In this document: in pieces, positions 3,027 to 37,756 of the stretch
How positions within the stretch are numbered: the stretch's first letter is position 1
Layout: each line of letters begins with the position of its first letter
NCBI RefSeq assembly: GCF_008935075.1
Contig: NZ_CP044545.1
Coordinates: forward strand, 3,785,587-3,849,586
Length of the DNA stretch: 64,000 nucleotides
From: Pradoshia sp. D12
GTDB taxonomy: Bacteria > Bacillota > Bacilli > Bacillales > Pradoshiaceae
Reading direction: 5' to 3'
Program-made: the position numbers and the translations under genes
The notes under the pieces: model-generated
Seen by the model: only the letters and a program-made list of their open reading frames with translations
Told to the model about the DNA's origin: nothing
Database searches by the model: none

Positions 3027-4220
3027 TTATTCTTTTGCCTTTGGCACTTCGATCATAATGGCATCTCCCTGTCCGCCGCCGCTGCAGATAGACGCGATCC
3101 CTATGCCGCCGCCACGTCTCTTCAGTTCATACATGAGGGTGAGAATGATTCGCGCCCCACTAGCTCCGATTGGATGGCCAAGGGCAACCGCTCCACCATT
3201 TACATTCACTTTTTCAGCATCAAGATTGGCAAGCTTGCCACTCGCAAGGGCAACCGCTGCAAATGCCTCATTCACTTCAAATAAATCAATATCATCCAGT
3301 GATTTTTCTGTTTTCTTAAGCAGCTCATTAATGACTAAGCCGGGAGTTTTTGGGAAATCCTTTGCTTCCACAGCAATTTCGGCATGGCCGATAATTCCTG
3401 CACCAATCTTGTATCCTTCATCAATTGCTTTATCCTCACTCATTAAAACAAGTGCTCCAGCTCCATCATTAATCCCCGGTGCGTTTCCAGCCGTTATTGT
3501 TCCATCCCGGTCAAATGCCGGTTTCAAGGAACTCAGCTTCTCCACTGTCGTATCTTTTCGCGGCGCTTCATCGATTTCCACAACAACCGGCTCACCTTTA
3601 CGCTGTTTGACCGATACTGGAACGATTTCTTCCTGCAGAAGGCCGGATTCAATTGCTCGAATTGCCTTTTGATGGCTCTGATAAGCCCAGTTATCCTGAT
3701 CACTTCTTGATAATTCCAGGTCCTCAGATGTGCTGTTACCGTAAGACCCCATATGTACACCGGTAAAGCTGCATGTCAAACCATCATGGACCATCATATC
3801 GACCAGCGGCGTATCTCCCATACGAGCTCCCCACCTTGCTTTCGGAAGAATATATGGAGCATTGCTCATTGATTCCATCCCGCCGGCCACGATAACTTCT
3901 TCTTCACCAAGCCGAATGATCTGGTCTCCGAGCGTGACGCTTCGTAAACCCGATGCACATACTTTATTAATCGTCTCTGTCTTTACTGACCATGGAAGCC
4001 CTGCATGTCTTGAGGCCTGACGAGAAACGATTTGCCCTTGGCCACCCTGTAATACACATCCCATAATGACTTCATTCACATCTGCCGCATTTACACCTGC
4101 ACGTTCTATAGCCTCTTTGATTGCTATTCCGCCTAACTCCGAAGCTGTTAAACTGCTTAATGCTCCTCCAAATTTTCCAAAAGGCGTCCTAGCTCCATCA
4201 ATAATTACGGTTTTCCCCAT
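3027..4220 (-). CDS. Acetyl-CoA acetyltransferase (thiolase)
   Basis: This 397-aa thiolase cleaves acetoacetyl-CoA or 3-ketoacyl-CoA, or runs the reverse condensation. The nucleophilic cysteine is in NKVCASGLRS (Cys88), and the C-terminal catalytic motifs are GHPIGASGAR and CSGGGQGDA. The start at 4220 (MGKTVIIDGARTPFG) is chosen because GGAGG precedes it by about 8 nt; an open frame continues 52 codons upstream but has no family similarity. A FadR-like site (4260-4277) and a cre-like site (4294-4307) lie just upstream, suggesting control by acyl-CoA and by carbon catabolite repression. It corresponds to MmgA of B. subtilis. Confidence 0.94.
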   Translation of the reverse strand: MGKTVIIDGARTPFGKFGGALSSLTASELGGIAIKEAIERAGVNAADVNEVIMGCVLQGGQGQIVSRQASRHAGLPWSVKTETINKVCASGLRSVTLGDQIIRLGEEEVIVAGGMESMSNAPYILPKARWGARMGDTPLVDMMVHDGLTCSFTGVHMGSYGNSTSEDLELSRSDQDNWAYQSHQKAIRAIESGLLQEEIVPVSVKQRKGEPVVVEIDEAPRKDTTVEKLSSLKPAFDRDGTITAGNAPGINDGAGALVLMSEDKAIDEGYKIGAGIIGHAEIAVEAKDFPKTPGLVINELLKKTEKSLDDIDLFEVNEAFAAVALASGKLANLDAEKVNVNGGAVALGHPIGASGARIILTLMYELKRRGGGIGIASICSGGGQGDAIMIEVPKAKE

Positions 4221-31859: not shown

Positions 31860-32720
31860 TTATTTTTGAACGATGTACTTATAAATGATATGGGCGACAC
31901 CATCCTCTTCATTTGTTAAGGTAACATCCTTGCACAGCCCTTTAATCTCATCGGATGCATTACCCATAGCAACGGACATCCCCGCTTTTTCGAACATAGA
32001 TAAATCATTAAAGTTATCTCCCACAGCAATTGTTTCTTCAAGTGGGATTCGTAATTTTTCTAGCAATTTCTCCAAAGCTATTCCCTTAGAAACACCACTC
32101 TGGTTAATTTCAATATTCCCCTTACCGGATGAAGTGACAGTTATTCCTTCCATCTCTCCAAGAATAGTGCCAGTATTTTTTAGTTTATTCATATCAGAGG
32201 AAAAGACTAGTATTTTGTATATTTCGATATCCTCTTCATTAATTAGCTGGAAGTAATCGTCTGTCGCAAATAAGAATCCAAATTTAATTCTGCCTTCAGC
32301 AAATTCACGAACTTTATCTTCTTCCTGATCAGGATTGGCACTCAAGAAGATATCGACAAGTGAATCAATAGCCTTTTCGGGGTTTTTGGAAAATGTCCCC
32401 CTGTTTGTATACATTTCAAAATAAAGATCCATTTCTTCCAAAAGCTTGACTGTCTCCACTAAGCTTTCTTGCTTCATCGGATTGGAATCCACCAAACTGC
32501 CTTCCTGATTATAAACAGCTGCTCCATTTAAACTGATAATAGGACAGTGAAAGTTAATCTCATCAAGTGCAAACCTTGCTTCTTTATAAGATCGGCCCGT
32601 AGCAACAATTACTTGTCCCCCGCTATCCCTTACTGCCTCCATCGCCTTTCGGTTCTCGTCACTTACCATTTGATGCTCATTCAGTAATGTTCCATCCATA
32701 TCGGTTGCTATACACTTCAT
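31860..32720 (-). CDS. Cof-type HAD phosphatase
   Basis: This 286-aa haloacid dehalogenase of subclass IIB dephosphorylates small sugar or cofactor phosphates. Motif I is DMDGTLLNEH at residues 7-16, motif II VIVATGRSYKEA, and motif IV GDNFNDLSMFEKAGMSVAMGNA. Substrate cannot be assigned. The ATG overlaps the stop of the DNA-repair gene upstream (ATGA), so the two are translationally coupled, which is a curious pairing without an obvious metabolic reason. Confidence 0.92.
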   Translation of the reverse strand: MKCIATDMDGTLLNEHQMVSDENRKAMEAVRDSGGQVIVATGRSYKEARFALDEINFHCPIISLNGAAVYNQEGSLVDSNPMKQESLVETVKLLEEMDLYFEMYTNRGTFSKNPEKAIDSLVDIFLSANPDQEEDKVREFAEGRIKFGFLFATDDYFQLINEEDIEIYKILVFSSDMNKLKNTGTILGEMEGITVTSSGKGNIEINQSGVSKGIALEKLLEKLRIPLEETIAVGDNFNDLSMFEKAGMSVAMGNASDEIKGLCKDVTLTNEEDGVAHIIYKYIVQK

Positions 32721-33397
32721 ACAGTCTCCCCCTTTAGAAAATGCTTACTACCTTCTCTTCTGCTGAGAGGTGCAAGCTCTGTTTTTTTTATAAAGTTCTT
32801 CACAGACTCCGGATCCGTTTTTGAATATTCTCTCAGTGCCCACCCAATCGCTTTTTGAATAAAGAATTCTTTACTATCCGCATTTTTCAATATGTAGTCA
32901 TATAAGATTCTCTCATTTGTTTGACCTTTATAGGAAAGTTGAAAGAGGATTGCTGTTCTACGTAGCCACATATTATTATCTATTACCCAATCATTCATGA
33001 TAGTATCTATTAAATCAGGATTTCTTAATACCAAATTGCCAACCTGCTTAGAGGCAATCATATCTACGGTATCCCACCAAGATTTTGTCGTAATTAATGT
33101 TTTTAGTAGCGGTAAATCCTTTACTTCCAGTTTGTCGATATAGTTAGCAAGGTAATCAAGCGCAGCATTTTGCCATTCTCTCTCCGGCATATTCCAAAGC
33201 TTTAAACAAAATTCATGTGAAAGCGGCATAGCAAGAATACCTGTTTCCTTAAAGAATACAGACATACATTTTCTTCTTTCCGGGGTTTTAATCCCGTAAA
33301 AAGGAAATTGATTCTTCATATATTGCGCCATTGCTACTGCTTGTTCTTCATTCTTTTCATTCTCAAATAACTGTTTTAAACGATTAATATAATCCAC
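32717..33397 (-). CDS. DNA alkylation repair protein (AlkD family)
   Basis: This 226-aa all-helical HEAT-like repeat protein belongs to the DNA alkylation repair family. Segments KNQFPFYGIKTPERRK, TTKSWWDTVDMIA, NMWLRRTAILFQLSYKG and FIQKAIGWALREYSKTDP match the AlkD group, with the Trp and Asp of the SWWDTVD segment in the active cleft. It is expected to excise N3- and N7-alkylated purines. It lies next to the repeat cluster at its 5' side and overlaps the HAD gene at its 3' end. Confidence 0.88.
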   Translation of the reverse strand: MDYINRLKQLFENEKNEEQAVAMAQYMKNQFPFYGIKTPERRKCMSVFFKETGILAMPLSHEFCLKLWNMPEREWQNAALDYLANYIDKLEVKDLPLLKTLITTKSWWDTVDMIASKQVGNLVLRNPDLIDTIMNDWVIDNNMWLRRTAILFQLSYKGQTNERILYDYILKNADSKEFFIQKAIGWALREYSKTDPESVKNFIKKTELAPLSRREGSKHFLKGETV

Positions 33398-33430
33398 ATT
33401 TCCACCTCACCTATTCTTCCCTTATAAGCC

Positions 33431-33969
33431 AGCTTCAGGGCCTAACCGCTCGAGTCATAAGTGTAGCTGCTGCAGTAGAGGAAAAGCGCTCTCCCTCCGT
33501 GCTTGTCGGAGTTGGGCAGTCGCCTCAGCTTTTTGTATAATCTAGCTTCGGCTCCTAGCTCCTCGAGGTCATAAGGATAGCCTCTACGGAGGTCAACAGG
33601 ACGTTGATCACAAAGACGTTGCCACACGATGTGGCGTTCTTAGTCTTTGTTCCTTAATTCGCCTGCCTTCGAGCCTCTCCTTATGCTTGTCGGAGCTGGG
33701 CAGTCGCCTCAGCTTTTTGATTAATCTAGCTTCGGCTCCTAGCTCCTCGAGGTCATAAGGATAGCCTCTACGGGGTAGAACACCCCTTCGAGCCTCTCCT
33801 TATGCTTGTCGGAGCTGGGCAGTCGCCTCAGCTTTTTGTATAATCCAGCTTCAGGGCCTAGCCGCTCGAGTCATAAGTGTAGCTGCTGCAGTAGAGGAAA
33901 AGCGCTCTCCCTCCGCACCTCCTCTTATGCTAGTCGCGGCTGGGCAAGGCCCTTCAGCTTTTTGTATAA
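33431..33969. repeat. Tandem cluster of four structured repeats
   Basis: Four related units lie head to tail: 33431-33543, 33544-33727, 33728-33846 and 33847-33969. Each starts AGCTTC(G/A)G, has CTCGAG(G)TCATAAG about 20 nt in, and ends near GGGCA(G/A)(T/G)...CAGCTTTTTG. Units 1 and 4 share one interior (GTGTAGCTGCTGCAGTAGAG), units 2 and 3 another (GATAGCCTCTACGG). Unit 2 has a 65-nt longer loop with its own hairpins (ACAAAGAC/GTCTTTGT around GCCACA/TGTGGC). In units 2 and 3 CATAAGGA pairs with TCCTTATG and AGCTCC with GGAGCT, so each unit can fold on itself. It is GC-richer than its surroundings and carries no convincing gene. Confidence 0.8.
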
Positions 33970-34173
33970 ATGAGCCTGTATTGGATAAACATACAATTAA
34001 TTAATTGAGTGTTACCTCTTTTTTATTAAGTCTAAGAATATTAAACTAGGGAAGTGGCTTCATGGAAGCTATTGCCAGAACTCATAATAACCTGGCTATG
34101 TATATACATATATTCTACGCATACATAATGACTGTTTTCAAATATAGTGATGAAAGAATTAGGAGTGACTACT

Positions 34174-35166
34174 ATGACTAAACAAACTCAATCTCCTTTA
34201 TCATTTTGGGGAGGTCTGGGCTTTACGGCCTTATTGGCGCTGCTTGGATTTGTCCTTGCTGAATTGCCCTTTTTCGAATACATAGGACCATTAGCATGCA
34301 GTATTTTGCTCGCCATCCTGTATCGTAATATTCGCAGCTATCCAACAAATTTACGGACGGGCGTTCATTTTTCAGCAAGAATTCTCTTACGTGCTGCCAT
34401 TATTTTATATGGGTTGAAATTAGATATGCAGATTATTTTTAGTGAAGGTCTTGGCCTTTTGGGTAAAGCTCTGATTTGTATCGTATTCTCTGTAGCCCTC
34501 ATGGTATTGCTTGGCAAATGGCTGAAAATTCATCCAATGATTTCTTTCCTGCTTGGTGCAGGGACAGGAATATGCGGCGCAGCGGCTATAGCAGCGGTTT
34601 CACCTATAGTGGATTCAAAAGAAGAGGACACGGCGATGAGCGTCGGGATGATTGCATTGATTGGTACTATTTTTTCAGTCGCCTATACGATGCTTATTCC
34701 GATTCTCCCCCTAACACCTACTGAATATGGAATTTGGTCCGGACTTAGCTTACATGAATTGGCTCATGTAGCTTTAGCGTCTGAGCCTGCTGGGGAAGCT
34801 TCTGTTACAATGGCTTTATTAGCTAAATTATGTCGTGTTTTCTTATTGATTCCTTTCTGTTTTGTATTAGTGTTCTGGATGAAACGTAAACAAGGCGCTG
34901 GCAGCCAATCCTCCATTCCATTTCCATGGTTTCTTCTAGGATTTCTGGCCTTAAGTATTTTTAGAACTTATCTTGCTGGATCCTGGTTTCCTGAATACCT
35001 ATATGATTACATTGCCATGCTGACCACTTTTCTACTTTCGATGGCTATGGCTGGGCTAGGCTTAACGATTGATTTAAAAGAGCTTAAGAAACGAGCCAGC
35101 CTTCCCTTGCTTACAATGGTTATTACATCCGTTCTTTTATCAATTCTGACATATTTTTGGGCATGA
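34174..35166 (+). CDS. YeiH family putative sulfate exporter
   Basis: This 330-aa membrane protein has about ten helices and the YeiH/UPF0324 signatures ILYGLKLDMQII, GAGTGICGAAAIAAVSPIV and LSLHELAHVALA, ending LTIDLKELKKRASLPLL. The family is annotated as putative sulfate exporters; direct evidence for transport is thin. The start at 34174 (MTKQTQSPLSFWGG) follows AGGAG by 8 nt; an ATG nine codons earlier is not preceded by a site. It stands alone after the repeat cluster. Confidence 0.85.
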   Translation: MTKQTQSPLSFWGGLGFTALLALLGFVLAELPFFEYIGPLACSILLAILYRNIRSYPTNLRTGVHFSARILLRAAIILYGLKLDMQIIFSEGLGLLGKALICIVFSVALMVLLGKWLKIHPMISFLLGAGTGICGAAAIAAVSPIVDSKEEDTAMSVGMIALIGTIFSVAYTMLIPILPLTPTEYGIWSGLSLHELAHVALASEPAGEASVTMALLAKLCRVFLLIPFCFVLVFWMKRKQGAGSQSSIPFPWFLLGFLALSIFRTYLAGSWFPEYLYDYIAMLTTFLLSMAMAGLGLTIDLKELKKRASLPLLTMVITSVLLSILTYFWA

Positions 35167-37265: not shown

Positions 37266-37361
37266 ATCCTATCCGCCCTTTGATTTATATCAGACTGTAT
37301 CCTCAATTAATCTGCTCCATCCAGGCGAAACTTATGCTTTATTTGCTTGCCAATATAAAAA

Positions 37362-37388
37362 GGGTACAATCCGAAAAGGATTGTACCC
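37362..37388. terminator. Terminator of the cold-shock gene
   Basis: Perfect stem GGGTACAATCC (37362-37372) / GGATTGTACCC (37378-37388) with five-base loop; on the minus strand TTTTTATA follows. Confidence 0.85.
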
Positions 37389-37405
37389 GATGGTTTTAAA
37401 TTTAA

Positions 37406-37603
37406 TTAGATACGCTCTACATTAGCAGCTTGTGGTCCGCGATTTCCATCAACGATTTCGAATTCAACTTCTTGACCTTCTTCAAGAGTTTTGAATCCTT
37501 CACCTTGAATAGCAGAGAAGTGTACGAATACATCGTCACCATCTTCACGCTCGATAAAACCAAAACCTTTTTCTGCATTAAACCATTTTACTTTTCCGAC
37601 CAT
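37406..37603 (-). CDS. Cold-shock protein (CspD-like)
   Basis: This 65-aa single cold-shock domain binds single-stranded RNA and DNA. RNP1 is KGFGFIERE at 12-20 and RNP2 is VFVHF at 26-30, followed by [11 protein letters not shown] and [10 protein letters not shown]. It is closest by eye to CspD among the B. subtilis paralogues. AGGGGG is 8 nt before the ATG. It has a promoter about 120 nt upstream and hence a long leader, typical for cold-inducible csp genes. Confidence 0.95.
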
Positions 37604-37756
37604 TTTTTTGGCCCCCTAACTTTTAGTGAAAATTTTAAAAGTAGAAAACCAGAAAAACCTTTTCTGTCTAAGCATGTACTTAAAGACTGTAAAAATTTTT
37701 TTGATCTTCAAACCTTTTTGCTGTTTTATTGTAACATACAGCTTACTAATTAACAA
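37604..37756 (-). promoter_or_regulatory. csp promoter and long 5' leader
   Basis: On the minus strand TTGTTA (37756-37751), a 17-nt spacer and TACAAT (37733-37728) form a good sigma-A promoter. Transcription would begin near 37721, leaving about 118 nt of U- and A-rich leader before the start codon. Such leaders in known csp mRNAs act as temperature-dependent structures; that role here is inferred. Confidence 0.65.

What the first reader, a model, noticed from the sequence alone, without database searches (positions are those of the whole stretch)
33431..33969. Tandem array of four foldable repeats with two alternating types and a variable loop
Four head-to-tail units have shared ends (AGCTTC...CAGCTTTTTG) but two interior types in the order A-B-B-A. 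Each unit can form a long imperfect hairpin whose loop differs; one loop carries an extra 65-nt module with its own stems. The GC content stands out from the surroundings. The layout suggests a REP/MITE-like family that inserts into or recombines with itself, or a set of small structured RNAs each ending in a T run. I know of no feature class that explains the A-B-B-A order. The mobility and RNA ideas are inference.
Basis: partly seen in the sequence, partly recalled or inferred. Interest (0 to 1): 0.7.

Follow-up and report, generated by a model that had tools for sequence, protein, structure and literature searches.

The report
Bacillales palindromic repeat array, nested module
The four repeats are one array of a short, hairpin-shaped, apparently mobile DNA repeat that is scattered through most Bacillales genomes; one copy carries a second repeat that the RNA database Rfam lists as a small RNA (Bacillaceae-1), and base-pair statistics say the hairpins are preserved as DNA symmetry rather than as RNA.

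Summary
The array is real, at the stated place and far from chance: four tandem units (33427-33963, +), GC 0.53 against 0.35-0.37 in the flanks. The order is not quite A-B-B-A, because unit 1 is a broken A/B chimera. About 70 units occur at 29 loci of this genome. A covariance model built from them finds the family in 111 of 150 Bacillales genomes. It is not in Rfam. The extra 65-nt module in unit 2 is Rfam RF01690 (Bacillaceae-1). That module disperses independently, sits in at least three repeat families, and lies in either orientation to the ends of its carrier.

Covariation in the stems is very strong. However, G.T and A.C mismatches are equally common (18:16), whereas SRP RNA from the same order shows 162:1. 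The arms are therefore kept complementary as DNA, not as functional RNA. Units end at array-specific 5-13 nt sequences that recur after each unit and in the right flank, like target duplications. Their T-run end lies within 15 nt of the stop codon of a convergent gene in 18 of 31 cases; the other end does so in 1 of 41.

Best reading: a new family of ERIC/YPAL/BOX-like mobile palindromes carrying a nested module. The mobilising enzyme is unknown. Neither Y1 (RAYT-like) transposases nor reverse transcriptases fit.

The parts
33427..33534 (+). unit 1: broken chimera, 5' half of type A and 3' end of type B, inner 3' arm deleted
   Evidence: repeat families D1, D2; 55 bits, against 93-114 for the others
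33540..33718 (+). unit 2: type B unit with the Bacillaceae-1 module in its apical loop
   Evidence: (93 bits)
33593..33659 (-). nested module, Rfam RF01690 Bacillaceae-1; its reverse complement, which carries the AGGA loops, runs in the direction of the array
   Evidence: 77.8 bits, gathering score 35
33724..33837 (+). unit 3: type B unit without insert, -52.6 kcal/mol
   Evidence: 109 bits
33843..33963 (+). unit 4: type A unit without insert
   Evidence: 114 bits
33530..33540 (+). array-specific junction TTTTTGTATAA after unit 1
   Evidence: sequence; junction test
33714..33724 (+). junction TTTTTGATTAA after unit 2 (variant)
   Evidence: sequence
33833..33843 (+). array-specific junction TTTTTGTATAA after unit 3
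   Evidence: sequence
33959..33969 (+). the same 11 nt TTTTTGTATAA at the right edge of the array, then unrelated sequence; target-duplication-like
   Evidence: sequence
32717..33397 (-). left neighbour: DNA alkylation repair enzyme (PF08713); not found between the syntenic genes in the two sister species
34147..35166 (+). right neighbour: PF03601 membrane protein (YeiH-like)

Best explanation
The array is a tandem cluster of a small (114-121 nt), non-coding, imperfectly palindromic, non-autonomous mobile repeat that is widespread in Bacillales chromosomes. A copy inserts, mainly in intergenic DNA, so that the sequence following its 3' end (usually a T-run) is repeated on the other side. Further units enter at the same point, which gives head-to-tail arrays with one array-specific junction. 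Unit 2 additionally carries the independently dispersing Bacillaceae-1 palindrome in its loop. Two-arm symmetry is required or enforced at the DNA level (hairpin or cruciform during movement, or arm-to-arm correction during replication); after insertion the copies decay without selection on RNA pairing. SHOWN here: copy number, distribution, covariation, absence of wobble bias, junction repetition, stop-codon placement, nested module. INFERRED: mobility by hairpin DNA, target duplication as the origin of the junctions, order of events, and an unidentified enzyme acting in trans (or replication-based copying).
For: Genome-wide copies. Present in 111/150 Bacillales genomes with copy number from 0 to at least 24 (capped), often varying inside a genus. 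Both sister species lack any unit at the orthologous position. Structure: own units 93.1% paired cells and 168 double-change cells against 67 shuffled; 69 units from other genomes 93.3%, 570 against 158, covariation score 0.62 against 0.18, far above all slid controls. DNA rather than RNA: G.T:A.C = 18:16 in those units and 37:22 in own units, against 162:1 in 30 SRP RNAs of the same order. Junctions: identical prefix between last junction and right flank averages 5.2 nt against 2.1 when arrays are shuffled, p < 5e-5 in 20,000 shuffles, including non-T targets such as ACTATGGTAA. Placement: T-run end within 15 nt of a convergent stop codon in 18/31, head end in 1/41, Fisher p 7e-8. Nested module segregates independently: 49 genomes with units but no Bac-1, 16 with Bac-1 but no unit; three host repeat families and both orientations.
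Against: No clean empty/filled pair was obtained: the sister loci also lack the neighbouring gene and have diverged too far to read a target duplication. No mobilising enzyme was found. Thirty RAYT-like loci have no flanking unit; 16 high-copy genomes lack a RAYT-like gene and 26 lack a reverse transcriptase. No unit was found in plasmid or phage collections. Seven of 25 arrays do not show the 5-nt junction/flank identity.
Confidence: 0.75

Rival explanations
1. The units are genes or processing units for small structured RNAs, each ending in an intrinsic-terminator-like hairpin plus T-run.
For: Strong covariation; T-run after each hairpin on the + strand; own units show a slight excess of G.T over A.C, 37:22.
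Against: G.T equals A.C in other genomes (18:16), while SRP RNA in the same order gives 162:1. No fixed orientation or position relative to genes. Copy number 0 to at least 24 within single genera. The nested module occurs in both orientations relative to the element ends.
Confidence: 0.1
2. The arrays are CsrA-sequestering (CsrB-like) RNAs built around the Bacillaceae-1 module, as proposed for the reverse complement of RF01690 by Gardner and Eldai (PMC4333381).
For: The published motif match. In the array direction the module shows CAACAGGAUGUUGG-type hairpins: loop 1 keeps GGA in 33 of 41 own copies. csrA is present in the own genome. In the module G.T exceeds A.C, 43:10, on that strand, though 22 of the 43 come from a single column.
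Against: Loop 2 keeps GGA in only 19 of 41 copies. Both loops read ACGA in the two G033 copies L241 and L242, and the module is inverted relative to the element ends in L243-L246. Three of seven csrA-less genomes still carry the module, and all seven carry units. 49 genomes have units without the module.
Confidence: 0.08
3. A domesticated DNA signal or insulator: arrays are kept because hairpins next to stop codons alter mRNA decay, translation termination or supercoiling, as proposed for some REPs.
For: T-run end abuts convergent stop codons in 18/31 cases; E. coli REPs within 15 nt of stop codons are reported to stall ribosomes (PMC12306157).
Against: Sporadic presence between related species; no conserved location found, and sister species lack any unit at this locus. 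Placement can follow from insertion preference plus tolerance alone.
Confidence: 0.15
4. REP/RAYT system: the single Y1 transposase gene of this genome mobilises the units.
For: RAYT-like genes are commoner in unit-bearing genomes (78/111 against 17/39, p 0.004, not corrected for phylogeny).
Against: The own gene sits beside a different tandem repeat. None of 30 RAYT-like loci has a unit in its flanks. Sixteen high-copy genomes lack the gene.
Confidence: 0.08

Closest known systems
YPAL / RU-2 (Yersinia palindromic sequence; described in PMC2229807)
   Different: Different host order; tandem arrays with array-specific junctions and a nested second repeat are the rule here. Sequence relation was not tested
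ERIC / IRU (127-bp enterobacterial repeat; PMC2229807)
   Same: Imperfect palindrome of about 120 nt, intergenic, dispersed; larger forms with internal inserts are recalled from memory, not checked
   Different: ERIC has TA termini; the units here end in AGC...GCT plus T-run and occur in Bacillales
BOX (S. pneumoniae modular boxA-boxB-boxC repeat; PMC3049150)
   Same: Modular element: arms plus an optional inner module that may be absent or present; inserts near other repeats
   Different: Here the inner module is a free-living repeat family of its own and whole units, not loop modules, are tandemly repeated
Rfam RF01690 Bacillaceae-1 RNA (PMC2864571)
   Same: The 33593-33659 module is a member (77.8 bits)
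   Different: Rfam files it as an sRNA; here it behaves as a dispersed palindromic module nested in several repeat families
REP / BIME with RAYT transposase (PMC2817692)
   Same: Short palindromic extragenic repeats in clusters, complementary changes in arms, closeness to stop codons
   Different: No GTAG head, three to five times longer, same-direction tandem arrays, not associated with RAYT genes

Membership tests
Rfam RF01690 Bacillaceae-1 | covariance-model score above the gathering threshold (35 bits) | tested here: met
   77.8 bits at 33593-33659, minus strand
Rfam RF01690 Bacillaceae-1 | acts as a small RNA | not testable with these tools
   no transcript data; both orientations relative to the carrier's ends speak against a fixed transcript
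CsrA-binding sRNA (CsrB-like) | conserved GGA in hairpin loops | tested here: inconclusive
   GGA in loop 1 in 33/41, in loop 2 in only 19/41 own copies
CsrA-binding sRNA (CsrB-like) | occurs only where CsrA exists | tested here: not met
   G035, G053, G054 have the module and no csrA hit; all seven csrA-less genomes have units
REP/BIME | 20-40 nt palindrome with GTAG/GTGG head | tested here: not met
   units are 114-121 nt with head ATCYAGC; REP definition
REP/BIME | RAYT gene flanked by two inverted copies of the repeat | tested here: not met
   0 units in 30 RAYT-like loci including the own one
Bacterial MITE-like repeat (ERIC, YPAL, BOX kind) | under 200 bp, non-coding, dispersed multi-copy, palindromic | tested here: met
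Bacterial MITE-like repeat (ERIC, YPAL, BOX kind) | target-site duplication | tested here: inconclusive
   array-specific 5-13 nt repeated after units and in the right flank, but no empty site could be read
ERIC and RUP type MITEs | 5'-TA-3' at termini | tested here: not met
   termini are (A/G)TCYAGC...GCTTTTT/C
Group II intron or other reverse-transcriptase-borne element | reverse transcriptase available in the genome | tested here: not met
   26 high-copy genomes have no RVT_1 hit; no correlation, p 0.46
Functional structured RNA gene family | wobble pairs preferred over A.C mismatches in helices | tested here: not met
   18:16 in units against 162:1 in the SRP RNA control

The most novel reading that the evidence does not exclude
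The units spread without a dedicated transposase: single-stranded hairpins copy or template-switch during replication at T-runs beside gene ends. Each event adds one unit and repeats the local target, and arm-to-arm (quasipalindrome) correction keeps the arms perfectly complementary, so that DNA repair alone imitates RNA covariation across a whole bacterial order.
Probability: 0.2. Interest if true: 0.75.

Novelty: new member of a known kind. Interest (0 to 1): 0.45.

Why it matters
The family is among the commoner non-coding features of Bacillales intergenic DNA (111 of 150 genomes sampled), yet it has no Rfam entry and I found no description of it in the papers searched. It also recasts a catalogued 'small RNA' (RF01690) as a nested mobile palindrome. 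The G.T against A.C count is a simple test that separates RNA-selected structure from DNA symmetry, and could be applied to other comparative-genomics RNA candidates that rest on covariation alone.

Tried and rejected
RAYT/Y1 transposase as mobiliser: own gene found beside another repeat, no units in 30 RAYT-like loci, many high-copy genomes without it. Reverse transcriptase: no correlation. tRNA/rRNA association: no tRNA in any of the 29 array regions. Plasmid or phage carriage: no match with two unit variants. CsrA sponge: see rivals. Terminator targeting as the sole rule: only 8 of 29 arrays have a same-strand terminator within 60 nt upstream. Empty-site reading in sister species: too diverged, and the neighbouring gene is missing too. 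Replication-strand bias: nothing convincing by eye. A weak mir-491 hit (24.9 bits against a cut-off of 62) is chance. A first automatic junction scan mis-assigned some right flanks; its junction figures are replaced by the hand-checked list. Exact-sequence searches of the paper library for family consensus strings gave no relevant paper.

Full report
OBSERVATION. The window (G000, contig 1, 3785587-3849586, a 3.93-Mb single-contig genome) holds four head-to-tail units at 33427-33963 between two divergent genes, a DNA alkylation repair enzyme (PF08713, 32717-33397, minus) and a PF03601/YeiH-like membrane protein (34147-35166, plus). GC is 0.53 against 0.35 and 0.37 in the flanks. Units 2-4 score 93, 109 and 114 bits against a covariance model of the family; unit 1 scores 55 because it joins the 5' part of type A to the last 37 nt of type B and lacks the inner 3' arm. 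The order is therefore chimera-B-B-A rather than A-B-B-A.

FAMILY IN THIS GENOME. BLASTN finds 73 matches in the genome. With nhmmer they resolve to about 70 units in 29 loci, most of them arrays, plus 47 copies of the module that is inserted in unit 2. All arrays were read. Every stem of the unit occurs in several matched variants (for example CTAGCTCC/GGAGCTG, CTAGCCGC/GCGGCTG, CTAGGAGC/GCTCCTG, CTAGAAGC/GCTTCTG), and the variants of different stems are combined freely.

THE INSERT. The extra module of unit 2 is Rfam RF01690 Bacillaceae-1 (77.8 bits, minus strand, 33593-33659), catalogued as a structured RNA candidate in PMC2864571. PMC4333381 notes that its strand was uncertain and that its reverse complement resembles CsrA sites. 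The unit itself has no Rfam match.

DISTRIBUTION. The unit model R1 finds units in 111 of 150 Bacillales genomes, with up to at least 24 per genome (the scoring cap) and large differences within genera. RF01690 occurs in 78 of the same 150. The two segregate: 49 genomes have units without the module and 16 the module without units. In G033 the module lies in an element with the unit's termini (TCTAGCTCCAGCGCCC...GGGCGCTTGCGCTTTTC) but an unrelated interior, in both orientations (L241-L242 against L243-L246). In G119 it lies in yet another repeat (GCTCCGGAAATACACTTCGCTTTCCGCGG...). So it is an independent, nested module. Named genomes holding units include Sporosarcina globispora, Neobacillus piezotolerans and Cytobacillus oceanisediminis. 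No plasmid or phage record matched.

RNA OR DNA? Own units: 93.1% of cells pair, 168 double-change cells against 67 in shuffles. Sixty-nine units from other genomes: 93.3%, 570 against 158, covariation score 0.62 against 0.18, and all slid controls far below. By the usual criterion this would be a structured RNA. But a functional RNA helix tolerates G.U and rejects A.C. In the units the two are equal: 18 G.T to 16 A.C among about 2,000 paired cells (own units 37:22). SRP RNA from 30 genomes of the same order, treated the same way, gives 162:1. Changes also go almost straight from one Watson-Crick pair to another (524 double against 15 one-sided in units; 96 against 54 in SRP). The simplest reading is that the arms are kept complementary as DNA, at the stage when the element propagates, and that inserted copies then decay without selection on RNA pairing. 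Own cells are not independent of phylogeny, so the size of the effect is approximate; the contrast with SRP is not subtle.

ANATOMY OF INSERTION. After the last paired bases (CAGC) each unit is followed by 5-13 nt specific to that array, usually beginning with a T-run but also ACTATGGTAA, ACTCT or ATCTT. The same nucleotides follow the last unit in the genomic flank (window: TTTTTGTATAA at 33530-33540, 33833-33843 and 33959-33969). Over 25 arrays the identical prefix averages 5.2 nt against 2.1 when arrays are shuffled (p < 5e-5). This looks like target duplication of variable length, with new units entering at the same point. In one search the first unit of an array is often 5'-truncated while 3' ends are precise. 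The T-run end lies within 15 nt of the stop codon of a convergent gene in 18 of 31 cases (own and 40 loci of other genomes); the head end lies that close to a stop codon in 1 of 41 (Fisher p 7e-8). Terminators, when found near own arrays, lie mostly on the head side.

LOCUS HISTORY. In both sister species of the genus the YeiH-like and HAD-hydrolase genes are direct neighbours, with neither units nor the alkylation-repair gene between them. The array is specific to this lineage, but divergence prevents reading an empty site.

MACHINERY. The only Y1 transposase gene of this genome (L174:1465-2007, 180 aa) stands next to a different tandem repeat. Thirty related loci contain no unit. RAYT-like genes correlate weakly with units (p 0.004, uncorrected) and reverse transcriptases do not; 16 and 26 high-copy genomes lack them. 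The enzyme, if any, is unknown. Replication-based hairpin copying is a live but unproven alternative.

CSRA. Loop 1 of the module keeps GGA in 33 of 41 own copies and loop 2 in 19 of 41. csrA exists in 143 of 150 genomes, but three csrA-less genomes carry the module and all seven carry units. With the inverted copies in G033 this makes a CsrA sponge unlikely as the general function, without excluding occasional binding.

COMPARISON. Works like, and is best filed with, the ERIC/YPAL/BOX kind of small non-autonomous palindromic repeats (PMC2229807, PMC3049150). YPAL is nearest: not A+T-rich, no TA ends, target duplications of 3-26 bp, targets at dyad symmetry. It is not a REP: no GTAG head, wrong length, no RAYT association (PMC2817692). 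Proximity to stop codons recalls E. coli REPs within 15 nt of stop codons (PMC12306157). What is unusual is the combination of same-direction arrays with private junctions, freely combined stem variants, and a nested repeat that is currently listed as a small RNA.

LIMITS. No transcript data, no strain-level comparison, one genome per species, and caps that truncate copy numbers. The statement that the family is undescribed rests on Rfam 15 and on searches of an open-access paper library only.

Noticed in passing
L174:2120-2490 (G000, next to the Y1 transposase gene at L174:1465-2007): A different tandem repeat of about 100 bp (GAGCTATGAGGCACCTATGGACCGGCTATACCGGGGTAAAGG...) directly downstream of the genome's only Y1/RAYT-like gene; a similar sequence precedes the array in L063. 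Possibly the true partner of that transposase.
   Followed up: partly
G000, 1.36-2.78 Mb (outside the window): None of the 29 array loci lies in this third of the chromosome. The SRP gene at 23 kb suggests that the contig starts near the origin, so the empty stretch is the terminus region (chance about 2e-6 if uniform). By eye not seen in G011.
   Followed up: partly
L241 and L242 (G033), hairpin CTCGC-AGGAT-GCGAG / CTCGC-ATCCT-GCGAG: The same hairpin carries its loop in opposite orientations in two copies, as if hairpin tips invert.
   Followed up: no
L050:3301-3606 and 3617-3922: A two-unit block with one Bacillaceae-1 module is duplicated perfectly (316-nt period), a recent array expansion.
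   Followed up: no
window 37358-37691, minus strand: Rfam cspA thermoregulator hit (96 bits, above the cut-off of 78); the downstream gene was not examined.
   Followed up: no
window 32717-33397: The DNA alkylation repair gene next to the array is missing between the syntenic genes in both sister species; gain or loss together with the array is possible.
   Followed up: partly
G002 genome: 18 reverse-transcriptase matches against one in the window's genome: a reverse-transcriptase element expansion in a sister species.
   Followed up: no
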